Source: Phaeacidiphilus oryzae TH49 (GTDB lineage: Bacteria; Actinomycetota; Actinomycetes; Streptomycetales; Streptomycetaceae). From it: DNA of 64,000 nt. Below, piece after piece: positions 19,413 through 47,758 of this stretch (position 1 is its first letter; every line of letters begins with the position of its first letter). The translations under genes and the position numbers were made by a program. Under the pieces are notes generated by a model, which was given only the letters and a program-made list of their open reading frames with translations, had not been told where the DNA came from and did not search any database. Location of the stretch: positions 3,108,055-3,172,054 of the forward strand of contig NZ_JQMQ01000005.1 of assembly GCF_000744815.1 (NCBI RefSeq), given 5' to 3'.

Positions 19413-19419
19413 CCCCGGG

Positions 19420-20397
19420 TCAGGTCAGGGAGCGGTCCCAGCTCGGCGACCGCTCCTGGCTGACCACCGGGATCGACCAGGAGACCCGCGCGGCGGCGAT
19501 CGGCCGCTGCGAGACCGGGTACGCGCGGGCGTCGTTGACGCTCCAGCGGAAGCCGGCGAAGCCGCCGTCCCCGCCGCCCGCGCCGTCCGAACCGGAGTAG
19601 AGGACCATGTGGCCGCGGCCCGCGCCGGTGTGCGGGACGGCGTCCACCGCCCGGCCGCCCCGCCTGCCGTAGGACCAGCGGGTGTCCGGGTACTTCTCGT
19701 AGAGGTCGAGCGAGCCGTGCTCGGGGTCGCCGTGCGGGGCGTCCGTGCAGTCCAGCACCTCGATGACATGGCCGACCGCGTCCGGTCCCAACTGGCGGTC
19801 CACCGGGGCGACCAGGGTGCCCTTGGCCTGCCGGACCATCGCGATATGGCCGGTGTACCAGGCGCGCGGGTCGCGGTAGTCGATGGCGACCAGGTCGCCG
19901 GGGCGCAGGTCGGCCGGCCCGCGGACCGCGGTGAACTGGGGGGCGCCGGAGGCGGCGGCGAAGCCGGCCCGGAACTCGGCGGCGTTGGGGTAGCGCTTGC
20001 TGCGGTCCCGCAGGCCCTCGGCGGAGAAGAAGTGCTGCCGGAAGTAGGCGTCGGTGGCCCAGCCGTAGGCCGTGCCGGCGCCGTAGACGTGCTGGAGGAC
20101 GAGGGTCTGGAAGGAGGCGCACTGGGCCAGGACGCGGCTGTCGCTCCCCCAGGAGACCTCGGTCAGGCGGCCGTCGTCGTCCGGCACGGACTTGTAGGAG
20201 TTGCGGTCGGCGTCCCAGGGAAGCGCGCTCAGCGCGTCCACGAGCTGCTCGGCGGCGGCCAGGTGGGGGGCCGTCCTCGGCTGCGGGGGCGGGGCGCTGC
20301 CGCCCTTCCGGCCGGTCCCGGACGAGCAGGCGGCGAGGCCGAGCCCGAGCCCGGCGCCCGCGGCGGCCAGCAACACCCGCCGACGGCTGAGCTCCAC
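19420..20397 (-). CDS. Lipoprotein with a CHAP/NlpC-like fold, function unknown
   Basis: The GTG at 20397 is preferred because GGAGGGGGAGG lies upstream, and it gives a standard signal: SRRRVLLAAAGAGLGLGLAAC with a twin arginine and a LAAC lipobox. The mature part of about 300 residues includes CASFQTLVLQHVYG and GDLVAIDY followed by WYTGHIAMV. That is a cysteine and a histidine in the order expected for a papain-like amidase, but I could not assign the family firmly. It is convergent with the GT39-like gene, with seven bases between the stops. Wall attachment or hydrolysis would suit the neighbourhood. Confidence 0.75.
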   Translation of the reverse strand: MELSRRRVLLAAAGAGLGLGLAACSSGTGRKGGSAPPPQPRTAPHLAAAEQLVDALSALPWDADRNSYKSVPDDDGRLTEVSWGSDSRVLAQCASFQTLVLQHVYGAGTAYGWATDAYFRQHFFSAEGLRDRSKRYPNAAEFRAGFAAASGAPQFTAVRGPADLRPGDLVAIDYRDPRAWYTGHIAMVRQAKGTLVAPVDRQLGPDAVGHVIEVLDCTDAPHGDPEHGSLDLYEKYPDTRWSYGRRGGRAVDAVPHTGAGRGHMVLYSGSDGAGGGDGGFAGFRWSVNDARAYPVSQRPIAAARVSWSIPVVSQERSPSWDRSLT

Positions 20398-35113: not shown

Positions 35114-35131
35114 GTGACCGCTCGCGGTCGC
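35114..35131 (+). promoter_or_regulatory. Hairpin after the leader frame, followed by CCTCC
   Basis: GACCGC-TC-GCGGTC forms a tight stem, extendable by a wobble and a further pair. The CCTCC at 35131-35135 that follows is complementary to the core GGAGG of the Shine-Dalgarno at 35044 and could mask it in an alternative fold. Confidence 0.45.
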
Positions 35132-35170
35132 CTCCTGGACGGAGCAGCGGGAGTAATCCAAGCAGTCACC

Positions 35171-35236
35171 CGGCCCCCGGGCCCGCCGGACAGTCCTTCC
35201 GGCAGCCGCCTTCGGCGGCTAGCGGCCCGGGGGTCG
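35171..35236 (+). ncRNA. Predicted three-way junction RNA structure
   Basis: An outer 13-bp stem (35171-35183 with 35224-35236, one G-U pair) encloses two hairpins: GCCGGA/TCCGGC (35185-35203) and AGCCGCC-TTC-GGCGGCT (35204-35220). The arms fit together almost without spare bases. No U-run follows, so it may be a terminator of the leader transcript, part of a regulatory RNA, or both. Confidence 0.45.
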
Positions 35237-35347
35237 TCCCATGCCCGCACGCGGACCGGCCGGACCGGACGCCGCCGCGGGCACTCTTTTGCTGTCAGGG
35301 CGCGTTCGCCACACTTGGCGGTGGACGGGCGACTGGGTGGGGGGCCG

Positions 35348-36265
35348 ATGGTGCGTCAGGATCCGCCGCGACAGCGGGAGCAGACGCTGCTGCCGGACTT
35401 CTTCGACTACGCGGACCGGGCCGCGCTGACCGGCCAGCGGCAGGCGATCCGCTGGTACGTCGGGCAGATCATCATGCTGCTGCTCGCCTCCGTGGTGGCG
35501 ATCCCGGACATCCACGCCAAGGGGCTCAACCTCTCGCCCGCGCTGTCGCTGCTGGCCTTCGTGGGCGCGTACTACTTCTGGGAGCGGCTGCGCGAGGAGC
35601 GCCCGCAGGCCGTCTGGTACGCCGGGCGGGCGGCCGCCGAGCTGATGAAGACCCTGGTGTGGAAGTACTCGGTGCGGGCCAAGCCCTTCGACGGGCCGCC
35701 CGAGTCCGCCGAGGCGGACGCCGGGTTCGCGGTGCAGATGGGCGAGGTCTTCCAGACCTTCCAGGACACCAAGGCGCTGCGCACCCGCTCCCGCCCGGAC
35801 ATCACCGAGGAGATGCGCCGGCGCCGGGCCTCCCCGCTCTCCGCCCGCCGGGACGTCTACCTCAACGAGCGGGTGCGCGGCCAGCGCACCTGGTACCGCT
35901 CGCGGGCCGACGAGTGCGACAGCGAGGCCGCCAAGTGGCAGGCGGTGTCGATCGTGGCGATCATCATCGGCGCCTCCTTCGCGGTCCTGCAGATCTTCCA
36001 GATCGTCCCCTGGCACGTGCTGGGCACCTTCACCACCGTCGCCGCCTCGGTCACCGCGTGGACCCAGCTCAAGCAGTACGGCCCGCTCTCCGCGGCCTAC
36101 CGCCTCGCGGCCACCGAGCTCGACATGCTGGAGGTCCAGCTGGAGCGCCTCGACATCAACGCCCCCGAGGCGGAGGAGAACTGGTCCCGGCTGGCCGCGG
36201 ACGCCGAGGACGCCATCACCCGCGAGCACACCGTGTGGCGGGCCCGGCGGGACCGTGCGGCGTAG
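35348..36265 (+). CDS. DUF4231 (SLATT-like) membrane protein
   Basis: The 305-residue protein has two pairs of membrane helices: IIMLLLASVVAIPDI with LSPALSLLAFVGAYYF (about 38-75), and VSIVAIIIGASFAVLQIF with LGTFTTVAASVTAW (about 200-235). The second pair and the following coiled region (LDMLEVQLERLDINAPEAEE) match the DUF4231 pattern, related to SLATT domains proposed as pore-forming effectors in nucleotide-sensing conflict systems. No nucleotide cyclase or SLOG partner is adjacent. ATG 35348 was chosen; GTG 35351 is also possible, and a G-run lies upstream. The next gene is convergent. Confidence 0.8.
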   Translation: MVRQDPPRQREQTLLPDFFDYADRAALTGQRQAIRWYVGQIIMLLLASVVAIPDIHAKGLNLSPALSLLAFVGAYYFWERLREERPQAVWYAGRAAAELMKTLVWKYSVRAKPFDGPPESAEADAGFAVQMGEVFQTFQDTKALRTRSRPDITEEMRRRRASPLSARRDVYLNERVRGQRTWYRSRADECDSEAAKWQAVSIVAIIIGASFAVLQIFQIVPWHVLGTFTTVAASVTAWTQLKQYGPLSAAYRLAATELDMLEVQLERLDINAPEAEENWSRLAADAEDAITREHTVWRARRDRAA

Positions 36266-36294: not shown

Positions 36295-37092
36295 CTACGG
36301 CCCCACCCGCACCGCCGTGTCCACCAGGTCGCGGACGCCGACCAGCAGCGCCCGGGCCGAGGCGACCCGGCCGGGGCGGAGGGTGCGCAGATGGGGGGTG
36401 ATCCGGGAGGCCCATTCCGGGAAGTGGAGGTCGTCCAGGGCGGCGTCGGTGAAGGAGACCCAGCGGGGCCGGCCGTCCGGGCCGAGGACCTTGCAGGAGT
36501 ACATCTGCTGGCGGAGGCCGCCGCGCCGGTACTCGGCCAGGTGGAGGGCGGTGGCGACCTCCAGGCCGACGCCCACCAGCAGGTTCTGCGCGTCGAGTTC
36601 GTACAGGCGGGCGAGCGGGGAGCGTTCGCCGAGGTGGCTGGTGAGGGCGTGGCCCTCGGTGATCCGGCGGGCCTGCGGGCCGATCGCCGCGAAGGAGGTC
36701 TGCGGGTGGGCGCTGCGCAGCGCCCCCGGCAGCCGGCGCACCCGTTCGGAGAGCACCCCCAGGGTGGGCGAGGCGGGGGTGCGCTCCGGATCGTAGGGCG
36801 GCATCCGGTCCCACAGCACGGAGGCCTGACGCTCCGTCAGGTGCCGAATGCGGCTACGATGCGCGCGCGAGGTCGTGGAGTTCTCGTCGGTAGCCGTGTA
36901 GACCACAAGGGTGCCCTCGGGGCCGAGCACCGCGCGGAGCGCCGCTATCGCGGAGTCGACGCCACCGCTGACCACACCGAGCGCGCGCATCGAGGACTGA
37001 ACCAGCAGCACCCCGCCCGGCCGGACACCCAACTCGGCGAGTTCGGCGGCCAGTTCGCGCTCCCCCGGCAGCCGTCCGAATTCTGTTCGCAT
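36295..37092 (-). CDS. AAC(3)-family N-acetyltransferase
   Basis: The 265-residue protein has the aminoglycoside 3-N-acetyltransferase (antibiotic_NAT) fold: LLVQSSMRALGVVSGGVDS near the start, TLVVYTATDENSTTSRAH and the family signature AHPQTSFAAIG near residue 145. Acetyl-CoA would donate to an amino group of an aminoglycoside or a related metabolite. Many such genes in actinomycetes are not resistance genes, so the substrate is open. It is divergent from an alpha/beta hydrolase and shares a 155-base control region with inverted repeats. No ribosome-binding site precedes the ATG. Confidence 0.88.
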   Translation of the reverse strand: MRTEFGRLPGERELAAELAELGVRPGGVLLVQSSMRALGVVSGGVDSAIAALRAVLGPEGTLVVYTATDENSTTSRAHRSRIRHLTERQASVLWDRMPPYDPERTPASPTLGVLSERVRRLPGALRSAHPQTSFAAIGPQARRITEGHALTSHLGERSPLARLYELDAQNLLVGVGLEVATALHLAEYRRGGLRQQMYSCKVLGPDGRPRWVSFTDAALDDLHFPEWASRITPHLRTLRPGRVASARALLVGVRDLVDTAVRVGP

Positions 37093-37247: not shown

Positions 37248-38276
37248 ATGGAGTTCACGGTTTCCGTCGACCTCCCTGGCAGCGAACCCAGACGCCTCCG
37301 GTACATGGACTCGGGCGACCCCGACGGCCGGCCCGTGGTGCTGCTGCACGGCACGCCGGGCAGCCGGCTGGGCCCCTTCCCCAACGAGGCGATGCTGTAC
37401 CGCAACAGCATCCGGTTGATCACCTACGACCGCCCCGGCTACGGCGGCTCGGACCGGATGGTGAAACGGCAGGTGGGCGACGCGGCCGCGGACGTGGAGA
37501 GGATCGCGGACGCTCTCGGGCTCGAACGCTTTGGAGTGGCCGGGCGGTCCGGCGGCGGACCCCACGCCCTCGCCTGCGCGGCCGCGCTGCCCGGCCGGGT
37601 GACCCGCTGCGCCTCCCTGGTCTCCCTCGCCCCGTACCGGGCGGAGGGCCTGGACTGGACCGCGGGGATGGTGGAGTCCAACCGCAGGGCGTACGCCGAG
37701 GCCGCGGAGTACGGGCTGAGCGAGGTCGAGGCGAGCCTCTGCCAGAAGCGCAGCGCGATAGCCGGCGAGGACCGGAGCGGCGGCGCCACCGCCGTGGCCG
37801 AGCGGCCGAGCGCGCAAGCGGCAGCGGCAGCGGCAGAGCGGCCGACCACGGCAGAGCGGCCGGCGGAGCAGCCGCAGGCGGCCGAGCGCTCCACCGTGGA
37901 CGGCGGCCGGATGCTGCGCCGGATGGACTCCGAATGGCACTCCACCGACCGGGCGGTGGCCATGAACCCGGAGCTGAGCCGACAGCTTCAGGCCACCTTC
38001 CAGGAGGCGCTGCGCACCGACACGGCCGGCTGGGCGGACGACGTGATGTCCTTCGTCAGCGACTGGGGCTTCGACCCCGCCGAGATCGACACCGACCGGG
38101 TGGACGTGCTCCTCTACCACGGCTCGGAGGACATCTACTCCCCCGCCTCGCACAGCCGCTGGCTGAGCTCCCGGATCAGGGGCTCGCGGCTGTGGATAGA
38201 GCCGGGCGTCTCGCACTTCGACAACCTCCGCCGGCTTCCCGAACTCCTGGTCTGGGTCGCCAACGGGGACGCCTGA
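37248..38276 (+). CDS. Alpha/beta hydrolase
   Basis: The 342-residue enzyme has a classical alpha/beta hydrolase layout: VVLLHGTPGSRLGPFP (oxyanion loop), YDRPGYGGSD, the nucleophile elbow GVAGRSGGGPHAL with serine near 106, an acid in YHGSEDIYSP and histidine in PGVSHFDNLR. Residues about 170-215 are an Ala/Glu/Pro/Gln-rich low-complexity insert in the cap region, which is unusual and has imperfect AERP repeats. A GAGAGGG site precedes the ATG. Substrate is unknown. It is convergent with the fxs operon, ending 31 bases from it. Confidence 0.87.
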   Translation: MEFTVSVDLPGSEPRRLRYMDSGDPDGRPVVLLHGTPGSRLGPFPNEAMLYRNSIRLITYDRPGYGGSDRMVKRQVGDAAADVERIADALGLERFGVAGRSGGGPHALACAAALPGRVTRCASLVSLAPYRAEGLDWTAGMVESNRRAYAEAAEYGLSEVEASLCQKRSAIAGEDRSGGATAVAERPSAQAAAAAAERPTTAERPAEQPQAAERSTVDGGRMLRRMDSEWHSTDRAVAMNPELSRQLQATFQEALRTDTAGWADDVMSFVSDWGFDPAEIDTDRVDVLLYHGSEDIYSPASHSRWLSSRIRGSRLWIEPGVSHFDNLRRLPELLVWVANGDA

Positions 38277-38307: not shown

Positions 38308-41300
38308 CTACCAGGGCTGGAGCTCCAGGATCCGGCTGAGCCGCTTGCGCTTCTGGGCCCGGGTGTACTCGGGGTGGTCGGCGTCCCCGAGCAGTGAGAA
38401 GAGCAGGGTCATCGCCTCCTCCCGGGTCCGCTCCGCCCGGTCGGCCTCGCCCAGCTCGGCGAGGACCAGGGAGAGGTTGGCGGCGCAGACCGCCCGGTCC
38501 AGGTGGCTCTCGCCGAACCAGGCGGTGGCCCGGTCGAGGGCCAGCTCGCCGATCCCCCGGGCCTCCTCCCAGCGCCCGTGCCCGGCCAGGGTGTTGGCCC
38601 AGTTGATGGTCGAGCAGATGGTGAACGGGTGCTGGTCGCCGAGCCGCTCCTCGAGCTGCCGGACGGTGGCGGCGTGGAGGTCGAGGGCCTCCAGCCGGCT
38701 CTCCCGGTCCAGGCTCTCGCTGGAGAGGAAGACGGCCAGGTTGTCCGCGCTGCCGAGGGTGTTGGGGTGCTCCGGGCCGAGCTGGGCGGCGAAGAAGGCG
38801 TGCACCTCCCGGGCCAGGTCCACGGCCTCCCGGTGGCGGCCGGCCATCCACTCCTCGGCGGCCAGGGTGAGCTGGCTGGTACGGGTGTCCGGGTTGTTCT
38901 CGCCGTACTGCTCGCGGCAGCGCTCCGCGGTGTCCCGGATCAGGGTGAGGGCGTTCTCCGACTGGCCCGCCAACCGGTAGGAGACGGCGAGGTTCCGGCA
39001 GATCACCAGGGTCCGCAGGTTGTTCGGCCCCTGGGCGTTCGCCATCCGCTCGCGGATCCGCTCCAGCCTGCGGACGGCCTCGGCGATCTGGCCGGCGTCG
39101 CGGAGGTCGCGGACCAGGTGGGATTCGGAGATCAGGGTCTCCGGGGCGTCCGCGCCGAGCACCCGGACCCGGCGCTCCCAGGTCTGCTGGTCGAGGCCGC
39201 GGGCGCGCTGGTAGTCGCCGAGCAGCCGGTGGTCGAGCGCGACGTTGTTGGCCATCCGCAGGGTGCGGACGTGGTCCGGGCCGAGCCGGTTGGTCAGCGA
39301 CTGGAGGGTCTGCTCGTCCTGGGTCAGGGCCTCCTGGTAGCGGCCGAGGGCCCGCAGGTCGCCGCCGACGTTGCCGGCCGAGATCAGCGCGTGGACGTGC
39401 TCGGGTCCGCTCACCCGGCGCTGCCTGCCCAGGGTCTCCTGGTCCATCTCCAGCGCCTCGCGGTAGCGCCCGGTGCTGCGCAGCACGTTGCCCAGCTCCC
39501 GGCGCAGGGCCAGGGTCACCCGGTCGTTCTCGCCGAACTGCTCGCCCCAGGTCCTCAGCAGGTCGCTGCCGATCGTGTTGGCGCGGTCGAACTCACCGCG
39601 CAGCCAGAGGTAGCGCACCCAGTCGACCATCAGCTCGCGGGCGTCGTCGTCCCGGCTGGTGCGGGCCTGCGAGGGGGTGAGGTGGGGCCAGATACGGTCC
39701 AGCTCCGGCCAGTTGGCCTCGTTGTCCACGTCGCCCTCGATCCGGGCGCGGCCGGCCGTGAGCACCTGGTGGACGCGGCGGCGGCGCTCCTCCTGGGCGT
39801 CCTCCTCAAGGCTGGAGCGGACCACCACCTGGACGAGCCGGTGCAGCTGCACGGTGGAGTGCTGGTTGTCGATCCTGGCCAGGGAGTACTTGCCGAGCTG
39901 CTCGAAGACCGTGCCCAGGGTCGCCCGGTCGCTGATCGCGTCGTCCACCTGGCTCAGCTCGCGGCGCAGCTCACGGTCGTAGAGGAGGTCCATAGCGATC
40001 GGCTCGGGGGCGAAGAAGGCGCACAGCTCCAGCATCCGGGCCGCCGCCGGGGCCTCCTGCCGGAGCGTCTCCACCGAGATGTTCCAGGTGCGGGCGACGG
40101 CGTTCGGGTACTCGTTGGCCTTGCCTGCCGCCAGCAGCGGCGGCAGCTCCCGGTGCAGCATGTCCAGGTACTCCGGGACGGGCGTGCCGGTGGTGTCCAG
40201 CCAGGCGGCGGACTGCTCGATGGCCAGCGGAAGGTCGCCCAGCTGCTCGGCCACGTCGTTGGCCTGCTCCCGGGTCAGCCGCGGGACGCGGAAGAGGAGG
40301 TGGCGGATGGACTCCTCGCGCGGGAAGACGTCCAGGTTGATCGGGTCGGCCACGCCGGACCAGGCCGGGTTGCGGGAGGTGATGATCACGTGGCCGCTGC
40401 CGCCGGGCAGGAAGCCGGTCAGGTCCTCCGGCTCGCCCGCGTTGTCGAAGATCAGCAACCAGTGCTTGCTGGGGTAGCCGCGGCGCAGCGCGTCCAGCGC
40501 GTAGGCGGCGTTGGGCGCGGCGACCGGGGAGGCGCCGGGCCCCTCCTCGGCCATCCGGTGGGCGTCGATCCGCTGGGCCAGGTTGCCCAGTTCGACCGGG
40601 ATCAGGTCGCGCTGGTCGGCGGCCACCCACCAGATCACGTCGTACTCGAAGCGGTACCGCCAGGCGTACTCCTTGGCCAGCTGCGTCTTGCCGACGCCGC
40701 CCATGCCGTGCAGCGCCTGGGTGGACTGGGACGGGGTGGCCTGGAGGAGGGCGGTCGCCTCGCCGCCCCGCAGCTGGGCGCGGAGCCGGGCGAACTCCTC
40801 GGCCCGGCCGGTGAAGGTGCGGTTGCGCACCGGCAGGTTGGTGATCTCCGGTTCCGCGCCCGGGTAGCGGGCGGTGACCCGGGCGGCCTCGTTGCCGGTG
40901 AAGTTGTGCCGCGGGTTCATCGCCTGCAGCAGGGCCCGGACCGCGTCCCGCTGGTTCAGCTGGGTGAGGTCGAGGCGCTCGGCGGCCCGCCCGGACTCCA
41001 GCCGGGCGCCGCCGACCAGGACCGAGAGCTCCCGGGGGAGCTCGCCGGTGGCGGGCAGCCCGGCCACCCGGGCGCGGAAGCCCTCGGCGGCCGCGGAGTC
41101 CTGGAAGGCCCGGGAGACCACGCTGACCACCCGAGGGGCGGACTTCAACTGCTCGTCCGGCTGCACGGTCTCGCCGCCGTTCGCGGCCGGCCGGGCGGCG
41201 GCCCCGCCCGGCTGCGCCGGCGTGTCGGGCTGCGGCACCTGGTCGACGATCGGGAGGGTGCTGACCTGGTACTCGCTCTCCTCCAGCACCTCGCGCAGCC

Positions 41301-42369
41301 ACAGCGCCCAGTGCTGGTCCTCGGGCAGATGGGCGAGGACCACGGAGGCGGGCTCGGCGAGCCGCCGGGTGTACCGGCCCCGCCAGGTCAGCCGGAGGTC
41401 CTCGTCCATCTCGGGCAGCCGGACCACCTCGCCCTCGGTGATCTCGCCGGTCAGCCGCTCGCAGGCGGCCAGCAGGGAACGGGGGTCGCCGGGCCGGTCG
41501 CCGAAGACCGCCGGCATCTCCTCGTAGGCGTAGAACGGCTGGTACGGGAACGGGATGCGGCTCCAGTAGGCGTCCCGTTCGACCGCGCTGCGGCCGGAGG
41601 GCAGGCCGTCGAAGCGGTTGCGGGCCAGCGCCTTGCCCGCCTCGGCCTTGTCGTGCTCGCCCTCGTCGATCCGCATCGGCACCGGCAGCACCCGGCGGGT
41701 CCGGCTGAGGTCGCGCCGGACGTCGCGGGCCACCTCGGCGGCGCCGTCGATGCCCTGGCCGCTCAGGGTGAAGCAGACCACCAGGGTGTCCGGCAGGTCG
41801 AGGGTGCAGATCCCGGCGACGTCGCTGAGCCCGGTCCTGCTGTCGATCAGCACGTAGTCGTACTCGCGGGTCATCGCCTCCCGCATGGCCAGCAGGAACC
41901 GCTTGCCGTACTCCCTGGTGTAGAAGACGGTCCAGTTGATCTCGGAGAGCTCCCGGGAGTAGTCCCAGCCCACATGGCCTGCGGGGAGATAGGAGAGCCG
42001 GCCGCCGGCCGGGAAGTGGTCCCAGTTGAGGTCGATGACGTGCGGTCCCAGCGCGGTGGACCGCTCGATCAGCTCGTCGGGCGCGCCGGGGCGGCGGCCC
42101 TCGGGGGTGACCCCCTTGAGCGCCTCGCGGTAGGCGCTGATCATGTGGATGACACCGCAGCCGGTGCGGGCGGACTCCGGCGGTAGGAAGGGCTCCAGGA
42201 ACCGGTCGAGACCGGGCGCCTCCAGGTCCCAGTCCACCACCAGCACGCTCTTGCCGCTGGCGGCGAGGATCCAGGCGACGTTGGCCAGCGCCATGGTGCG
42301 GCCGGTGCCGCCCTTGTACGAGTAGAACGTGACCACCTGGCCGTTGTGGTCGATGGACTGCGGCGTCAT
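38308..42369 (-). CDS. fxsT: FxSxx-COOH system ParA/NB-ARC/TPR protein FxsT
   Basis: The 1353-residue protein is multi-domain. Residues 10-300 are ParA/MinD-like, with P-loop YSYKGGTGRTMALANVAW (19-25) and LIDSRTGLSD. Residues about 340-480 look TIR-like (VVLAHLPEDQHWALWLREVL). Residues 515-800 are an NB-ARC ATPase, with ALHGMGGVGKTQLAKEYAWR as Walker A and LLIFDNA as Walker B. About eight TPR units follow (1000-1340, e.g. LRSTGRYREALEMDQETLG). This is the NLR-like architecture of the FxsT family and suggests a signal-controlled switch. ATG 42369 has GAGGGA upstream. It is the last gene of the fxs operon, 64 bases after the second fxsC. Confidence 0.9.
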   Translation of the reverse strand: MTPQSIDHNGQVVTFYSYKGGTGRTMALANVAWILAASGKSVLVVDWDLEAPGLDRFLEPFLPPESARTGCGVIHMISAYREALKGVTPEGRRPGAPDELIERSTALGPHVIDLNWDHFPAGGRLSYLPAGHVGWDYSRELSEINWTVFYTREYGKRFLLAMREAMTREYDYVLIDSRTGLSDVAGICTLDLPDTLVVCFTLSGQGIDGAAEVARDVRRDLSRTRRVLPVPMRIDEGEHDKAEAGKALARNRFDGLPSGRSAVERDAYWSRIPFPYQPFYAYEEMPAVFGDRPGDPRSLLAACERLTGEITEGEVVRLPEMDEDLRLTWRGRYTRRLAEPASVVLAHLPEDQHWALWLREVLEESEYQVSTLPIVDQVPQPDTPAQPGGAAARPAANGGETVQPDEQLKSAPRVVSVVSRAFQDSAAAEGFRARVAGLPATGELPRELSVLVGGARLESGRAAERLDLTQLNQRDAVRALLQAMNPRHNFTGNEAARVTARYPGAEPEITNLPVRNRTFTGRAEEFARLRAQLRGGEATALLQATPSQSTQALHGMGGVGKTQLAKEYAWRYRFEYDVIWWVAADQRDLIPVELGNLAQRIDAHRMAEEGPGASPVAAPNAAYALDALRRGYPSKHWLLIFDNAGEPEDLTGFLPGGSGHVIITSRNPAWSGVADPINLDVFPREESIRHLLFRVPRLTREQANDVAEQLGDLPLAIEQSAAWLDTTGTPVPEYLDMLHRELPPLLAAGKANEYPNAVARTWNISVETLRQEAPAAARMLELCAFFAPEPIAMDLLYDRELRRELSQVDDAISDRATLGTVFEQLGKYSLARIDNQHSTVQLHRLVQVVVRSSLEEDAQEERRRRVHQVLTAGRARIEGDVDNEANWPELDRIWPHLTPSQARTSRDDDARELMVDWVRYLWLRGEFDRANTIGSDLLRTWGEQFGENDRVTLALRRELGNVLRSTGRYREALEMDQETLGRQRRVSGPEHVHALISAGNVGGDLRALGRYQEALTQDEQTLQSLTNRLGPDHVRTLRMANNVALDHRLLGDYQRARGLDQQTWERRVRVLGADAPETLISESHLVRDLRDAGQIAEAVRRLERIRERMANAQGPNNLRTLVICRNLAVSYRLAGQSENALTLIRDTAERCREQYGENNPDTRTSQLTLAAEEWMAGRHREAVDLAREVHAFFAAQLGPEHPNTLGSADNLAVFLSSESLDRESRLEALDLHAATVRQLEERLGDQHPFTICSTINWANTLAGHGRWEEARGIGELALDRATAWFGESHLDRAVCAANLSLVLAELGEADRAERTREEAMTLLFSLLGDADHPEYTRAQKRKRLSRILELQPW

Positions 42370-42433
42370 TGCGGGTCCCTCGGGAGCGGTGGAGCGGAAC
42401 GGAGTGCGGACTCGGCCGGCTTCTGACGGTACG

Positions 42434-43768
42434 TCACCAGCGGGATGCCTGGCCCGGGTCGGGCCCGAACAGTCGCGGGGGCGGATCGTCCTGCTGCTCG
42501 GCCGCGGGGTCGTACGCGGGCTCGAGTTCGGGGTCGGACCGCCGCCTGCCACGGGCGCTGTGCTCCAGCTGGTCCGCCGCCCGGCGCAGCTCCTGGGCCA
42601 GGGTCTGCCGGAGCGCGCCGGGATCTGTGACAACGATCGGCAGGCTGCGCAGTTGCGGTTTTCGGCGGCTGAGGAAGGGTTCCAGGGTCTGGTAGAGCCT
42701 TCGCCGCCGGTCCTCCTCAGCGTCGGCGTCCCCGCCGTCCACGCCGTCCTCGCCGCCGGACCAGGGCACCAGCACCGCCAGCGGCCCGCCGACCTCGCGG
42801 GCCACGAACTCCCGTACGAGGTCGGCGAGTCGGGGGTCGTCCAGCGCCCACGGGTCGATCAGCAGGACGGTCACCGCGTCGGGATGCGGCGGCGGGGGGA
42901 GGCCGCCGCCGACGAAGGGGTCGACGAAGGGGTCGACCACGGATCCGTAGCCCTGCCCCTCCAGCATCCGGCGGACCTGGTGGATCAGCGAGTCCGGCGG
43001 CTCGGCGTCGCCCTGCGGCGGACGCAGCCCCCAGAGCCGCGCCGACGGCCCGTCCGGCAGCGCCGCCACCAGCAGGCGCACCATCCCGGACGGGTCGAAC
43101 GCGCTCTCGGTGTTCTCCAGATCGACCACCCCCGTCCTGGCGCCCGGTGCGGACCGGGCGGAGGCCACCACCAGGTCGGCCAGCCGGCGGACCGCCTGCC
43201 GGTACTCGGCCCGCCGCAGCGGCGAGCGGCCGAGCGCCAGCATTCCGTCGGAGGCGTACCCGGCGCCTATCCGCGCGTGCTCGAACTCCAGCTCCTCGGC
43301 GGCCCTGGGCAGCAGCACGGCCGGCACCGGCCGCCACAGCACCGGGACGATCGGGGGCTTCCACCCGCGGTCCCCGGGCCGGACGAAGCTCTGCGCGAAG
43401 GCCTGCCACTCCTTCCCGCAGAAGTCGTTGCGGAAGTACTCCTCGCAGAACAGCGGCACCAGCACCCGGCTGTTCAGCAGGGCGTGGTCGAGCAGCTTGT
43501 AGGCGTACGCAGGATCGTCGGAGTCCGCGGGGTCCGCCGCCGCCGGGCCGGCGCCGGCAGCGGAGACGGCGTCCTCGCCGCCGGCGCGGAGGTTGAGCCG
43601 GCCGGCCGCCGCCGGCCTGGGCAGTCTGGCGATCTCGGCCACGTCGGCGGAGAGGAGGCGGTGGAAGCCGTCGACGGCCGGGTCCACGCCGGGCGTCGGG
43701 GCGAGCGGATAGGGCGCGCTCAGGAAGTAGCTGACCGGCGTCTCCGGTCGGGTGCTCACGGGCGCCAT
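42434..43768 (-). CDS. fxsC: TIR-like protein FxsC (second copy)
   Basis: The 444-residue protein has an N-terminal TIR-like domain (1-205): YFLSAPYPLAP, SRVLVPLFCEEYFRNDFCGK and EWQAF match the FxsC pattern. A second domain (210-420) has DAVTVLLIDPWALDDPRLAD and PLAVLVPWSGG, as in the FxsC C-terminal family. The catalytic glutamate of NAD-cleaving TIR enzymes is not evident, so a signalling or scaffold role is more likely than NADase activity. Its ATG lies three bases after the stop position of the preceding fxsC in its restored frame, typical of an operon. The C-terminal 40 residues are charged and disordered. Confidence 0.88.
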   Translation of the reverse strand: MAPVSTRPETPVSYFLSAPYPLAPTPGVDPAVDGFHRLLSADVAEIARLPRPAAAGRLNLRAGGEDAVSAAGAGPAAADPADSDDPAYAYKLLDHALLNSRVLVPLFCEEYFRNDFCGKEWQAFAQSFVRPGDRGWKPPIVPVLWRPVPAVLLPRAAEELEFEHARIGAGYASDGMLALGRSPLRRAEYRQAVRRLADLVVASARSAPGARTGVVDLENTESAFDPSGMVRLLVAALPDGPSARLWGLRPPQGDAEPPDSLIHQVRRMLEGQGYGSVVDPFVDPFVGGGLPPPPHPDAVTVLLIDPWALDDPRLADLVREFVAREVGGPLAVLVPWSGGEDGVDGGDADAEEDRRRRLYQTLEPFLSRRKPQLRSLPIVVTDPGALRQTLAQELRRAADQLEHSARGRRRSDPELEPAYDPAAEQQDDPPPRLFGPDPGQASRW

Positions 43769-43771
43769 CCG

Positions 43772-44180
43772 TCACCCGTCCTCTTCCGGGCCGGGGCCGG
43801 ACAGGGAGCCGGGGCCGGGTTCGCCTTCGGGGCGCCGCTCCCGCCGCTCGGCACGCGGCCCGCGGGCGGCGCCCGCCGTGCCGCTCTTGCCGGCGGGCCG
43901 GCGGGCCCGGGTCGAGGCCGCACGCGGGGCCGGCGGACCGGCGGGTCCGGGCGGACCGGGTGGGCCGGGTGGCTCCGGCGGACCGGCGGGCGCCCGGTGC
44001 TCCTCCTGACGGGTCTTGAGGACGGTGACGTTCTCCTCCGGGACACCGCTCGGGCCGGCTAACGCCACCGGCCCCTCCACGGCCGCGGAGGCCGCCGCGG
44101 ACGCGAACGCCGGTGGCGGCACCGCCTCCCCGGCCGCCCCTCCCCGGGCCTCGCCCGCCCCCAGCCGCGGCCCGCGGCCT
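43772..44180 (-). pseudogene. Out-of-frame C-terminal part of the first fxsC gene
   Basis: One base out of phase with the TIR-like frame upstream, this stretch has good coding character: PPAFASAAASAAVEGPVALA, then PEENVTVLKTRQEEH and a Pro/Gly-rich tail. It ends at a stop at 43772, right before the next fxsC start, as expected for an intact operon. The phase change lies near the G-run CTGGGGGCGGG at about 44155-44170. A single-base indel or sequencing error would explain it. In this frame a TTA leucine codon, rare in streptomycetes and read by the bldA tRNA, occurs near 44060. Confidence 0.6.
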
Positions 44181-44916
44181 CGTCCCCGTCGACCTCCTCG
44201 GCACGCCCGGCACGCCCGCCGGGGGGCCGCCCGACGTGGAGGAGGGGCGGGCCCGACTCCTCGCCGAAGGCGCTCGGCACGTCGTCCAGGTTCTGCCGCG
44301 GCTTCCCCCGGTTGATGCAGTTGCGGTAGGCGACGTCCCGGATCCGCTCGGCCAGCAGGTAGATCGTCTCCTCCCGGTCCTCGCGCATCTTCGGCCTGGC
44401 CATCAGGCCGTACAGTCCGGTCCGCTGGTAGCTGGGCGGGAACTCCCCGCTGATGTGCTGGATCTTGGCCGCGATCGCCGGCATCTCCCCCGGCAGCGGC
44501 GCCCAGCAGATCGGCACGATCGACTCGGTGTGCTCCCAGCCCGGCCACCGGGGCTCGGTCCTGCGCTCGGAGAAGGCCTTCCACTCCCGGCCGCACATGT
44601 CGCTCTTGAAGTACGCCGGGGAGAGCAGCGGCACGAAGACCCGGCAGGTCGCCAGCTGGTCGGCGAGCCAGCGCCCCCAGTCCGTGCCGACCTGGATCTC
44701 GCTGTCCACCCAGCCCATCCGGACGTTGTCGCCGGTGACCTCGATCGGGTCGCAGATCTCCCGCAGGTGCCAGCAGAGTTCGGTGTAGAGCTGGTGGACC
44801 AGCCGGCGCGGGGTGCTCTCCGGCGGGTCGTCCTCACGCGCGCCCTTGGGGTGCGCGTGGCTCATGAAGAAGTACGGCCAGGAACGCTCTTCGCCGGTCG
44901 GCCCCTGAGGCACCAT
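44059..44916 (-). CDS. fxsC: TIR-like protein FxsC (first copy, probably frameshifted)
   Basis: The 285-residue frame encodes a TIR-like domain of FxsC type: SWPYFFMSHAHPKGAREDD at the start, MGWVDSEIQVGTDWGRWLAD, then ATCRVFVPLLSPAYFKSDMC and GREWKAFSERR. After LDDVPSAFGEES the sequence becomes Gly/Arg-rich and ends at 44059, leaving a 290-base gap to the next gene. That gap carries a coding frame one base out of phase, so the true gene probably runs 44916 to 43772. It follows fxsB by 92 bases on the minus strand. FxsC proteins are found only with FxSxx-COOH systems and their biochemical role is unknown. Confidence 0.82.
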   Translation of the reverse strand: MVPQGPTGEERSWPYFFMSHAHPKGAREDDPPESTPRRLVHQLYTELCWHLREICDPIEVTGDNVRMGWVDSEIQVGTDWGRWLADQLATCRVFVPLLSPAYFKSDMCGREWKAFSERRTEPRWPGWEHTESIVPICWAPLPGEMPAIAAKIQHISGEFPPSYQRTGLYGLMARPKMREDREETIYLLAERIRDVAYRNCINRGKPRQNLDDVPSAFGEESGPPLLHVGRPPGGRAGRAEEVDGDEAAGRGWGRARPGEGRPGRRCRHRRSRPRRPPRPWRGRWR

Positions 44917-45008
44917 GCCGTGGCCCCCTCACCCCGTGGCCCGCGCGGTCGCCACCGCCATCGGGAAATCACTCTACAGTCGTGATGTGCACGGAGGTTG
45001 ACGTTTCA

Positions 45009-47543
45009 TCAGCTGAATTCCACTGAAACCGATCGTCCGCTTCCCGCCCCCTCGCCCCCGGCTCCGGGCTCCCCGCACGGCGGCTCACGGAGCCACCCGA
45101 CCGCGAAGGACCGGCCGAGCCGGCTGAGCGCCCCGCCGGTCAGCAGCGACTCCGTCGCCTCGGCGAGCGCCGCGCGCCAGCGCAGCAGCTGCCCGCGGGC
45201 GGCCTCGGCCTGCCCGAGCTCGGCCGGCGACGCCCCGGGCCGCCGGGCCCGCCGCTCCAGGACGCGCAGCCGCGCGGCCCAGAAGTCGACCACGGCGAGA
45301 TGGGCGTAGATCCCCTGGAGGACGCCCTCCGGGGGCCGCGGGTCCGGCCGCCAGCCGACCTCGACCGGTTCCCCCGCCCGCGCGGGGTCGACCAGTTCGC
45401 GGAAGTCCAGCACCGCACCGAGCTTGCTGTGCTGGAACTCGTGGACCAGCTCCCGGGCCAGCGACTCGTGGACGGCCAGCTCCTGCCCCTCGGCCGGCAG
45501 GGCGACCGCCGCCGCGCCGGGGGCGGCCCGGGAGGTGGCGCTGAGCCCGTGCCCGGCCGGGTCCGGCTCCAGCGGGGTGAGCACCCGCAGGCCGGCGGCC
45601 AGCCCCTCGGCGTAGCCGGTGAGCTCGCGGTCGATCAACCGCCGCGCCTCGGCGGCGGTCTCGGTCCAGCGGCGGAAGGCCGCCCGGTCCAGCCGGGCGG
45701 CCGGGCGCAGCAGCGGATCGCCGCCCAGTGCCTCGCCCCGGCAGGGGTCGACGTCGTCCAGCCACAGCGTGCCCGCGTCGCCGCTCCAGAGCGCCCGGAC
45801 GGGCAGCCAGCCGGGGGTCTCCGGGCCCAGCGCCAACGGCGTCCGGCCGGGGCCGGGGAGGATCACCCGTCCGCCCCCGCTGCCGGTGACCCGCAGCACG
45901 GCGCCCCCGGCGGCGTCCCCGGCGGTCTCCTCGCCCCCGGGGATCCGCAGGACGCCCAGCGAGGGCAGCCGCAGCAGTCCACCGGGCCGGGTCCGCACGG
46001 CCACCTCGGCCGGGCTGCCCGCTCGTACCACGGCCGCCGCGGTCACCTCGGCCGCCGCGGCGGCCGCGGCGGCCGCGGCGATCGCCGACGCACCCGCCTC
46101 GCCGGAGGCCGGCCCGGCCGGAGCGGCGAACCCCAGCCGGCTGTACGGGTAGTCGAAGACCTCGTCGAGCGCCCGCGCGCCGGCCTCGTCCGCCTCCAGC
46201 TCCAGCAGCACCTCGCGCAGCGCCTGGTCGGCGGTCCTGAGCAGGCGGACCTTGAACCGCTGGGTGCCGGCCCCGGCCAGCGCGCGGACGGCCGCCGCGC
46301 TGCCCCGGCCGGCGGCCAGGCCGCGCCACTCCTCCGGACCGAGCTCCAGCCGCAGCCGGGAGCGCAGCTCCACCCCGTTGATCAGCGCCTTGAGGTCCTC
46401 GCAGTACACCGAGGGGTGGTCGAAGCCGCCGGGCGAGCCCGCGCCGTCCGCTCCCGCGCCCTCCGCTCCCGCGCCGTCCGCGCTCCGGTAGCGGTGGGCG
46501 TAGAGGCCGCCGCCGCAGCTGCCCACCACCGGGCAGTCGCGGCAGGTCTCGCACAGCCCGGCCAGGCCGAGCTGACGGGCCGTCACCCCCGGGTGCCGGG
46601 CGGCCCGTTCGAAGGCCTCCGGGTCGAAGACGTCCAGCCCGGTCCCGGGAGCGCCGTCGTACGCGGTCTTCAGCGAGTCCGCCTGCTCCAGGCTGCCGTC
46701 GGTCTCGATGACCAGCAGGTCGACCGGGTCCAGGCCGAGCGCCTCGGTCTCGCTCGGGCCGCCCTCGGCCATGTTCAGCAGCGAGTCGAAGAGCCGCACC
46801 GGCATCGGCCGCCCGGTCCGCTCCCACAGGTCGTACACCCTGAGCAGCCAGTCGGCGTACGGCACCGGTCCGGCGCCGGGCGGGCGCAGCGGGGGATGGT
46901 CCCAGGTGGCGTGCGGCAGCAGGAAGTCGACCCGCGGCGGCTCGGCGTCGAGCAGCGCCCGGTACACCGCCTCCGGATCGCTGCGGACGTCCACGGTGCA
47001 GAGCAGCCCGGCGTAGAGGTGGCGCCAGCGCGGGGAGGCGAGCAGCCGCAGCGCCCGCCTGACCCGGTCGTAGCTGCTGCGTCCGTTGGCGTACCTGCGG
47101 TGGAGGTCGTTGGCGGCCCGGTCGCCGTCCAGGGAGACACCGACCTTGATCCGGTGCCGGCTGAAGACCTCGCAGAACCGCTCGTCCAGGGTCAGCCCGT
47201 TGGTGTGGATCCGGAGGTCGAGGAGGTCCGGGTCGTCCAGCGCGCCGCGAAGCGCCTCCGCGGCCTCGGCGATCCTCTGCGGTCCGGCCAGCAGCGGTTC
47301 ACCGCCGTGCAGCACCACCTGGACCTGGGAGAGCCGGTGGACGCGCGCGTGCTCGGCGATCCGCAGCGCGGTCTGCCGCAGGACGTCGGGGCCGGCGGCC
47401 CACGGCCGGCCGGCCCAGCTCTGATCCTCGTGCTCGTAGACGTAGCAGTGGTCGCAGGCCAGATCGCACCGGCTGTGCAGCTTCAGCACGAACTGCCGGA
47501 AGGGGACGACCGGCGGCCCCAGGGCCGGCCCCGGATGCGGCAC
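45009..47543 (-). CDS. fxsB: FxsB-type radical SAM/SPASM enzyme with HExxH peptide-modification domain
   Basis: The 844-residue enzyme starts at a GTG eight bases after the fxsA stop. Residues 10-240 are a radical SAM domain with the 4Fe-4S motif CDLACDHCYVYE (Cys 26, 30, 33) and a CETCRDCPVVGSCGGGLYAH SPASM region near 330-350. The C-terminal 450 residues form the HExxH putative peptide-modification domain, with LVHEFQHSKLGAVL near 700 as metal site. In FxSxx-COOH systems this enzyme is thought to modify the short FxsA peptide. The fusion places two modifying activities in one chain. An Ala-rich stretch joins the domains. Confidence 0.93.
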   Translation of the reverse strand: MPHPGPALGPPVVPFRQFVLKLHSRCDLACDHCYVYEHEDQSWAGRPWAAGPDVLRQTALRIAEHARVHRLSQVQVVLHGGEPLLAGPQRIAEAAEALRGALDDPDLLDLRIHTNGLTLDERFCEVFSRHRIKVGVSLDGDRAANDLHRRYANGRSSYDRVRRALRLLASPRWRHLYAGLLCTVDVRSDPEAVYRALLDAEPPRVDFLLPHATWDHPPLRPPGAGPVPYADWLLRVYDLWERTGRPMPVRLFDSLLNMAEGGPSETEALGLDPVDLLVIETDGSLEQADSLKTAYDGAPGTGLDVFDPEAFERAARHPGVTARQLGLAGLCETCRDCPVVGSCGGGLYAHRYRSADGAGAEGAGADGAGSPGGFDHPSVYCEDLKALINGVELRSRLRLELGPEEWRGLAAGRGSAAAVRALAGAGTQRFKVRLLRTADQALREVLLELEADEAGARALDEVFDYPYSRLGFAAPAGPASGEAGASAIAAAAAAAAAAEVTAAAVVRAGSPAEVAVRTRPGGLLRLPSLGVLRIPGGEETAGDAAGGAVLRVTGSGGGRVILPGPGRTPLALGPETPGWLPVRALWSGDAGTLWLDDVDPCRGEALGGDPLLRPAARLDRAAFRRWTETAAEARRLIDRELTGYAEGLAAGLRVLTPLEPDPAGHGLSATSRAAPGAAAVALPAEGQELAVHESLARELVHEFQHSKLGAVLDFRELVDPARAGEPVEVGWRPDPRPPEGVLQGIYAHLAVVDFWAARLRVLERRARRPGASPAELGQAEAARGQLLRWRAALAEATESLLTGGALSRLGRSFAVGWLREPPCGEPGAGGEGAGSGRSVSVEFS

Positions 47544-47551
47544 CGGCCAGA

Positions 47552-47758
47552 TCAGATCGAGGAGTTGAAGCGGGAGACGGGCGCGGAGGCCGCCGTCGCG
47601 CCGCCGTCCTCGGCGGACCCGACGACGGGCGCCGGGGCGCCGGAGAGTCCGGTGAGACGGGCGAGTTCAGTCAGTGAGCCGCGGCGCGCGGCCGGCGCTG
47701 CCGACGGCGCCGGGCCGGCTGACCCGGTGGTGGTGGCGGTGGAGCCCGGAGTAATCAT
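47552..47758 (-). CDS. fxsA: FxSxx-COOH precursor peptide FxsA
   Basis: The 68-residue product ends in RFNSSI, which fits the F-x-S-x-x-COOH signature exactly (Phe-Asn-Ser-Ser-Ile). The middle has SLTELARLTGLSG, the usual leader-like helix that the modifying enzyme could recognise; the rest is Ala/Ser/Pro-rich. ATG 47758 is preferred: CGAAGG lies ten bases upstream, while the TTG at 47788 has no site. It is the first gene of the operon, followed after eight bases by fxsB. It is likely a ribosomally made, post-translationally modified peptide; the modification and its use are unknown. Confidence 0.88.
   Translation of the reverse strand: MITPGSTATTTGSAGPAPSAAPAARRGSLTELARLTGLSGAPAPVVGSAEDGGATAASAPVSRFNSSI

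What the first reader, a model, noticed from the sequence alone, without database searches (positions are those of the whole stretch)
38308..47758. Complete FxSxx-COOH operon combining a modified peptide with TIR-like and NLR-like proteins
Five adjacent minus-strand genes encode a 68-residue precursor ending Phe-Asn-Ser-Ser-Ile, a radical SAM/SPASM enzyme with an HExxH domain, two TIR-like proteins and a ParA/NB-ARC/TPR protein. The families are known by name, but what the peptide does is not. Peptide plus TIR-like plus NB-ARC/TPR is the parts list of an immune-type switch: the peptide could be the ligand that the NLR-like protein guards. This copy also has two fxsC genes.
Basis: partly seen in the sequence, partly recalled or inferred. 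Interest (0 to 1): 0.78.

Follow-up and report, generated by a model that had tools for sequence, protein, structure and literature searches.

The report
Peptide-coupled TIR/NLR operon plus channel gene
A soil actinobacterium carries a chromosomal gene set that makes a small, probably chemically stapled peptide next to immune-receptor-like proteins, and genes just outside the reported block, including a predicted membrane-channel protein, appear to belong to the same machine, which suggests a concrete and testable way it could work.

Summary
FxsB, FxsC1 and FxsT pass curated profile cut-offs; FxsC2 falls below them; FxsA rests on position and motif. The families are known, and a conflict system with the peptide as "toxin or signal" is already in print (Kaur et al. 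2020, PMC7159879, section 24). Added here: the set extends beyond the coordinates. An alpha/beta-hydrolase (37248-38276), a divergent AAC(3)-like acyltransferase (36295-37092) and a two-TM SLATT protein (35114-36265) recur at fxs loci: 59, 41 and 44 of 68 named loci, SLATT in three arrangements. In 61 genomes 16 of 20 SLATT_3 genes lie within 20 kb of an fxsB (0.13 expected by random placement). SLATT was seen in no locus of the second family. FxsT holds a TIR-like domain with Glu at the catalytic position in 1 of 114; FxsC keeps it in 120 of 122. Tandem fxsC recurs (5 of 30 relatives' loci). Best mechanism: peptide gates FxsT, whose pseudo-TIR recruits FxsC TIRs, whose NAD-derived signal acts on SLATT. 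No biochemistry tested; phage defence not shown; the locus looks vertically inherited.

The parts
47552..47758 (-). fxsA: 68-aa precursor ending FNSSI
   Evidence: translation; among 68 different tails collected with the pattern F.S[SACG]. (so F, S and the SACG class are imposed) -4 is N 42/Q 16, -2 A 35/S 30, -1 L 30/I 28/V 9; an F.S..-ending frame near fxsB in 67 of 68 named loci
45009..47543 (-). fxsB: radical SAM/SPASM cyclophane synthase fused to HExxH (aKG-type beta-hydroxylase) domain
   Evidence: TIGR04269 543.5 bits, TIGR04267 115.8 bits; cluster and SPASM Cys invariant in the 14 sequences aligned; HEFQH
44059..44916 (-). fxsC1: short TIR-only protein with D-EI-G-W and CGREW motifs
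   Evidence: NF040588 156 bits, TIR_2 39 bits; sequence, alignment
42434..43768 (-). fxsC2: degenerate TIR (D-EI-G-W motif lost, CGKEW kept) plus FxsC C-terminal domain
   Evidence: (below cut-offs), alignment, model, VIA
38308..42369 (-). fxsT: ParA/MinD-like domain with KGGTGR P-loop, TIR-like domain without the Glu, NB-ARC, DUF7779, TPRs
37248..38276 (+). alpha/beta-hydrolase convergent with fxsT (GRSGG nucleophile elbow)
   Evidence: PF00561 63 bits, sequence; relative in 59 of 68 named loci and 27 of 30 relatives' loci
36295..37092 (-). AAC(3)-like (Antibiotic_NAT) acyltransferase, divergent; usually between fxsB and fxsC, here 3' of the hydrolase
   Evidence: PF02522 219 bits; AAC_3 equivalog 164 bits, below cut-off 270; in 41 of 68 named loci, 39 of these 41 between fxsB and fxsC
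35114..36265 (+). SLATT_3 + SLATT_1 two-TM protein (likely start is an ATG inside this ORF)
   Evidence: PF18184 129 bits, PF18181 128 bits; NF033610 161, NF033634 117 bits; 44 of 68 named loci; 16 of 20 SLATT_3 genes of 61 genomes within 20 kb of fxsB

Best explanation
This is a member of the stand-alone FxSxx-COOH systems in which a ribosomal peptide is stapled and then used as the gating ligand of an NLR-like switch. FxsB would cross-link Phe to Ser in the C-terminal F-N-S (three-residue cyclophane) and its HExxH domain may hydroxylate the peptide; the AAC(3)-like enzyme probably acylates it and the hydrolase may cleave or clear it (all inferred). FxsT reads the peptide, or its loss, most likely through the TPR/NB-ARC part (inferred). 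FxsT carries a TIR-like domain without the catalytic Glu (shown by sequence), which on oligomerisation would recruit and line up the FxsC TIR domains, which keep it. These would turn NAD+ into an ADP-ribose-type signal (inferred) that opens the neighbouring two-TM SLATT protein and arrests or kills the hyphal compartment (inferred). In this copy FxsC is split into a TIR-only protein (fxsC1) and a degenerate-TIR protein with the C-terminal domain (fxsC2), consistent with a division of labour.
For: Gene identities by profile. Linkage in 68 named loci; 45 SLATT genes in 44 loci stand in three arrangements (21 5' divergent, 14 3' convergent of which 12 in pdxH loci, 10 3' co-directional), so not one frozen order. 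Enrichment: 16 of 20 SLATT_3 (0.13 expected) and 24 of 43 Antibiotic_NAT genes (0.27 expected) within 20 kb of fxsB. TIR motif over all loci held: FxsC has Glu in 120 of 122 and Cys in 120 of 122; FxsT has Glu at that position in 1 of 114 and Cys in 1 of 114. FxsT TIR_2 match in 27 of 27 chosen rows, best 7e-24. NB-ARC P-loop GMGGVGKT present. AAC(3)-like genes also beside short FxsB in three loci where no fxsC/fxsT was found (L064, L066, L067), so the gene goes with peptide maturation. NCBIfam names the FxsB family cyclophane-forming; MscB joins Phe to Ser (PMC11002830 passage); a fused rSAM-HExxH protein makes a cyclophane and beta-hydroxylates (PMC12636437 passage). TIR-SLATT gene pairs in phages and SLATT as predicted ADPr-regulated membrane effector: PMC9503650 passage.
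Against: No biochemical test. SLATT was not detected in 24 of 68 named loci (stretches end about 8.7 kb 3' of fxsB, so some are missed, e.g. the L040/L081 locus has one 15 kb away) and in 20 of 30 relatives' loci, among them all 15 from the second family (f3), whose 14 genomes have no SLATT_3 at all; it is at most a lineage-specific output arm. Random-placement expectations ignore common descent. HExxH is absent from 46 of 107 FxsB frames over 700 aa, so hydroxylation is not essential. Two FxsC lack the Glu (Gln in the second FxsC of tandem locus L047, Asp in L069). Window FxsT alone matches TIR_2 below the cut-off (22.7 of 28 bits). No evidence that FxsT binds FxsA or FxsC, or that FxsC acts on NAD+. 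FxsC2 model had no PDB match at E <= 0.001.
Confidence: 0.4

Rival explanations
1. Guard/decoy phage defence: FxsA is the guarded ligand, phage interference with its maturation triggers FxsT and abortive infection.
For: NLR/TIR parts list; prior proposal of a conflict role; FxsT matches the PADLOC candidate-defence model PDC-M28B at 2e-24 (two stretches, best in the ParA-like domain) and a second PDC-M28B model at 3e-11.
Against: No FxsT match in 50,697 phage records, 3 plasmid records of 72,556; core-chromosome neighbours (pdxH in 21 of 68 named loci, citrate synthase also in 19 of these).
Confidence: 0.22
2. Development or programmed cell death switch of mycelial bacteria: the stapled peptide is an endogenous signal that times compartment arrest or lysis; phages are incidental.
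For: Stable chromosomal setting; FxsB in 44 of 52 genomes of the window's order and 0 of 9 from other orders or families of the class; link to a membrane protein.
Against: No expression or mutant data; 6 of 37 genomes of the window's own family lack FxsB at E 1e-60.
Confidence: 0.25
3. The peptide is a secreted or intracellular toxin/antibiotic and FxsT/FxsC are its regulators or self-immunity.
For: Maturase, acyltransferase and hydrolase could be tailoring or self-protection enzymes; Kaur et al. allow a peptide toxin. Neighbour clustering also showed a secreted trypsin-like protease family in 33 loci of two Streptomyces arrangements and an ABC-transporter ATPase family in 10 loci, neither in the window.
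Against: Those two families are absent from the other arrangements or scattered, as expected of common Streptomyces genes; the conserved core is about five residues.
Confidence: 0.12
4. SLATT, hydrolase and acyltransferase are just conserved neighbours without a functional link.
For: Part of the linkage is vertical synteny (12 of 45 SLATT genes lie in pdxH loci); SLATT absent from all f3 loci.
Against: SLATT and hydrolase occur on either side of the core and in different orientations in different lineages; 16 of 20 versus 0.13 expected.
Confidence: 0.15

Closest known systems
FxSxx-COOH peptide-processing systems (Kaur et al. 2020, PMC7159879; NCBIfam NF040586, NF040588, TIGR04269, TIGR04276)
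   Same: fxsA, rSAM/SPASM fxsB, TIR-like fxsC, ParA-NB-ARC-TPR fxsT
   Different: Kaur et al. treat the HExxH domain as a peptidase, while NCBIfam now names it an aKG beta-hydroxylase; their passages on SLATT, acetyltransferases and hydrolases that I saw do not tie these to FxSxx (figures and source data not seen); two fxsC genes and a displaced acyltransferase gene here
Triceptides / MscB and fused rSAM-HExxH (ChlBH)
   Same: SPASM rSAM forming a three-residue cyclophane, Phe-Ser precedent; fused HExxH domain
   Different: Here the maturase sits with TIR/NLR proteins; modification not measured
Thoeris and TIR-SLATT gene pairs
   Same: TIR domain beside a predicted nucleotide-responsive effector; SLATT as predicted membrane effector
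   Different: No ThsA seen; TIR is under an NLR-like hub with its own TIR-like domain and a peptide input
Plant TIR-NLRs
   Same: TIR, NB-ARC and repeat domains
   Different: Catalytic-looking TIR and NLR are separate proteins; the NLR's own TIR-like domain lacks the Glu

Membership tests
FxSxx-COOH system | short precursor ending FxSxx next to fxsB | tested here: met
   68 aa ending FNSSI, 8 nt before fxsB
FxSxx-COOH system | FxsB rSAM/SPASM over curated cut-off | tested here: met
   543.5 bits, cut-off 370
FxSxx-COOH system | FxsT (NF040586) over cut-off | tested here: met
   889.8 bits, cut-off 300
FxSxx-COOH system | FxsC N-terminal TIR over cut-off | tested here: met
   FxsC1 156 bits, cut-off 130; FxsC2 97 bits, below
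FxSxx-COOH system | FxsC C-terminal domain TIGR04276 over cut-off | tested here: inconclusive
   FxsC2 41.4 bits, cut-off 55
FxSxx-COOH system | peptide is modified | not testable with these tools
   needs mass spectrometry
Catalytic TIR NADase (FxsC1) | catalytic Glu in the CxxE(W/L) motif (position recalled) | tested here: met
   CGREW in FxsC1; Glu in 120 of 122 FxsC frames
Catalytic TIR NADase (FxsC1) | NAD+ hydrolysis or cyclisation | not testable with these tools
   needs enzyme assay
TIR-NLR with catalytic TIR (FxsT) | Glu in the NLR's own TIR domain | tested here: not met
   window Phe; Glu in 1 of 114 FxsT frames, Asp in 5, gap in 3
Thoeris | ThsA effector | tested here: not met
   no such match among the seven proteins scanned with PADLOC or in the Pfam scans of cluster and neighbours
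AAC(3) aminoglycoside resistance enzyme | AAC_3 equivalog cut-off | tested here: not met
   164 bits, cut-off 270
SLATT effector | SLATT domain over cut-off | tested here: met
   NF033610 160.6 (45), NF033634 116.8 (41)

The most novel reading that the evidence does not exclude
A ribosomal stapled peptide is the ligand of a bacterial NLR hub whose own TIR is dead and which drives separate catalytic TIR proteins; their NAD-derived signal opens a SLATT channel, giving mycelial actinobacteria a peptide-gated, inherited cell-arrest or suicide pathway. The tandem-fxsC form would be an evolutionary split of FxsC into a catalytic and an adaptor protein.
Probability: 0.25. Interest if true: 0.88.

Novelty: new variant of a known kind. 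Interest (0 to 1): 0.62.

Why it matters
A defined extra set of partners, a dead-TIR hub with a separate live-looking TIR, and a candidate membrane output turn this into a testable circuit and link peptide natural-product chemistry to NLR/TIR signalling.

Tried and rejected
Neighbour clustering (40 largest families of six or more loci listed) gave mostly lineage-specific flanks. One family, found in 43 of 121 stretches searched (120 loci and the window stretch), looks by eye like a SLOG/LOG-type Rossmannoid protein next to SLATT or fxsA. It has no Pfam or NCBIfam match, its only PDB match was at E 0.31, only 10 of 51 genomic copies lie within 20 kb of fxsB (0.33 expected), and the window has none (three distant copies in the own genome). 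Not claimed as part of this copy.

FxsC2 structure: mean pLDDT 71.8; Foldseek no match at E <= 0.001; VIA best Z 11.0 (RRS1 TIR, 131 aligned, rmsd 3.0) for residues 227-402, tied within 1 with unrelated flavodoxin-like folds: a Rossmannoid fold, nothing finer. FxsT 519-aa model: ParA/MinD fold; its TIR part was barely tested by that list. FxsC1 was not folded.

TIR tree (57 rows, from the 40 relatives' loci, the window and only 10 of the 80 named loci; stretches of 90 residues or fewer left out): tandem fxsC genes have long branches without firm places; one or several origins of the duplication is not resolved.

Selections: alignments A1 (14), A2 (32 of 74 candidates), A3 (27 of 72) and A4 (14 of 43) were chosen by hand from longer lists; one search recounted the TIR motif on all 122 FxsC and 114 FxsT frames. 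12 of 80 named loci lacked full flanks and were left out. The relatives' and named sets overlap (contigs of equal length: L044/L077, L038/L130, L040/L081). The rSAM-domain scan returned the best 80 of 588, so the named set leans to Streptomyces and Kitasatospora.

Literature: 'FxsB' with 'cyclophane' and two of 'FxsA/FxsC/FxsT' gave no paper, 'FxsB' gave three unrelated ones, 'FxSxx' three, one relevant.

Full report
What is there. The window lies in a genome of the family Streptomycetaceae: three of its family members in the genome set have contigs of the same lengths as named Streptacidiphilus and Kitasatospora records; no other genome of its genus was among the 61 searched. The five genes are real and at the stated coordinates. 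FxsB, FxsC1 and FxsT exceed curated cut-offs; FxsC2 is below all of its own. FxsA is a 68-residue frame ending FNSSI, 8 nt before fxsB; no profile matches it, so its identity rests on position and motif. Among 30 loci of relatives with fused or long fxsB (L034-L063), fxsT and fxsC were found in 29 each and an F.S..-ending frame in 24; among 68 named loci with full flanks (of 80) in 67, 67 and 67.

Two fxsC genes. A short TIR-only fxsC followed by a longer one with the C-terminal domain occurs in five of the 30 relatives' loci (L045 in its second gene set, L047, L049 with a 137-residue fragment, L051, L057) and in none of the 68 named loci. In the window, fxsC1 keeps the D-EI-G-W and CGREW motifs; fxsC2 has lost the first and keeps CGKEW. 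End branches of the window copies in the TIR tree are 1.43 (fxsC1) and 1.27 (fxsC2) against a median of 0.35, with unsure places. The fxsC1 tail is uncertain: the GC signal changes frame near 44200-44100.

The set is larger than reported. Beyond fxsT lie an alpha/beta-hydrolase, an AAC(3)-like acyltransferase and a SLATT_3+SLATT_1 protein. In 68 named loci the hydrolase is found in 59, SLATT in 44, AAC(3)-like in 41. The 45 SLATT genes sit 5' divergent (21), 3' convergent (14) or 3' co-directional (10); the 61 hydrolase genes 3' convergent (49), 5' co-directional (10) or 5' on the other strand (2). The AAC(3)-like gene lies between fxsB and fxsC in 39 of 41, last in one cut stretch, and 3' of the hydrolase in one (L149), as in the window. 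Over 61 genomes 16 of 20 SLATT_3 and 24 of 43 Antibiotic_NAT genes lie within 20 kb of one of 69 fxsB genes; random placement gives 0.13 and 0.27. That expectation does not correct for shared descent, so the different arrangements are the better argument. Against it: none of the 14 genomes of the second family (f3) has a SLATT_3 gene. The AAC(3)-like protein is well below the cut-off for true aminoglycoside enzymes, and it also accompanies short FxsB in three loci where no fxsC or fxsT was found (L064, L066, L067), which places it with peptide maturation.

Active and dead domains. FxsB keeps the radical SAM and SPASM cysteines and HEFQH; of 107 FxsB frames over 700 residues 61 have an HExxH motif after residue 350 and 46 do not, and NCBIfam knows an inactivated form. 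FxsT's ParA-like domain has KGGTGR in 27 of 27 aligned rows (Arg where Lys is usual, from recall), in line with Kaur et al. calling it inactive; the model matches MinD/Soj (best Z 22.9, 235 aligned, rmsd 2.8). Its middle domain matches TIR_2 in 27 of 27 rows (best 7e-24; window alone 22.7 bits, below the cut-off of 28). Over all frames held, FxsT has Glu at the motif position in 1 of 114 (Asp 5, Gln 1, gap 3, the rest mostly Leu, Val, Ala), while FxsC has Glu in 120 of 122; the exceptions are Gln in the second FxsC of L047, itself a tandem locus, and Asp in L069. So the NLR-like protein carries a pseudo-TIR while the catalytic-looking TIR is in trans.

Mechanism. Shown: gene content, linkage, motif conservation. 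From the literature: MscB joins Phe C4 to Ser C-beta (PMC11002830, passages; I recall, unchecked, that its InterPro family is the FxsB one); a fused rSAM-HExxH protein needs a cyclophane and beta-hydroxylates (PMC12636437, passages); TIR domains pair with SLATT in firmicute phages, and SLATT is predicted to be an ADPr-regulated membrane effector (PMC9503650, passages). Inferred: FxsT senses the peptide or its loss; pseudo-TIR recruits FxsC; FxsC makes an NAD-derived signal; SLATT is the output. The sign of gating (peptide as activator, or as inhibitor whose loss activates) is open.

Defence or development. FxsT has no match in 50,697 phage records at E 1e-20 and matches 3 of 72,556 plasmid records at 1e-60, one of them an 11.9-Mb record, so of chromosome size. 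The window and 21 of 68 named loci have pdxH as neighbour, 19 of these also citrate synthase. FxsB was found in 44 of 61 genomes: 31 of 37 in the window's family, 0 of 1 and 13 of 14 in two others of its order, 0 of 9 elsewhere in the class. This speaks for vertical inheritance and an endogenous role at least as much as for mobile phage defence. On the other side, FxsT matches the PADLOC candidate-defence model PDC-M28B at 2e-24, its best stretch in the ParA-like domain, so a defence role is not excluded.

What is known. Kaur et al. 2020 (PMC7159879; section 24 read whole, other passages by search) already describe these stand-alone systems and propose a toxin or signal. The passages I saw on SLATT, hydrolases and acetyltransferases do not tie these to FxSxx, but figures and source data were not seen. 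Haft and Basu 2011, Phan and Morinaka 2022 and Morishita et al. 2024 are known to me from recall or citations only; two of them were asked for and are not held.

Verdict. Observation confirmed; interpretation partly supported and partly prior art; added value is the extended gene set, the dead-TIR/live-TIR split and a concrete circuit.

Noticed in passing
L073 (own genome, C5 about 3952900-3958500): A second fxsC-fxsT pair in the same genome; no fxsB, SLATT or hydrolase detected in the 20-kb stretch.
   Followed up: partly
L102:19744-20481 (-), L051:8151-8675 (+), L037:8063-9049 (-): A family resembling SLOG/LOG Rossmannoid proteins by eye lies next to SLATT or fxsA in 43 of 121 stretches; members scanned had no Pfam or NCBIfam match.
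   Followed up: partly
window 43770-44200: Third-position GC signal moves to another frame between fxsC1 and fxsC2; the 290-base gap is Pro/Gly-rich and open in a frame that ends just before the fxsC2 ATG.
   Followed up: partly
46 loci listed, e.g. L034-L036, L078, L086: FxsB frames over 700 residues that lack an HExxH motif while the rest of the system is kept in most.
   Followed up: no
L064, L066, L067: Short FxsB with AAC(3)-like genes and no fxsC/fxsT found, perhaps a separate peptide pathway.
   Followed up: no
L044, L045, L046, L084, L089, L103: Second fxsC-fxsT pairs beside the main operon, suggesting local duplication of the sensor/TIR half.
   Followed up: no
e.g. L093:5203-6462 and 18551-19792, L034:17749-18990: A secreted trypsin-like serine protease family (named by eye) flanks the locus in 33 Streptomyces-type loci, in some on both sides.
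   Followed up: no
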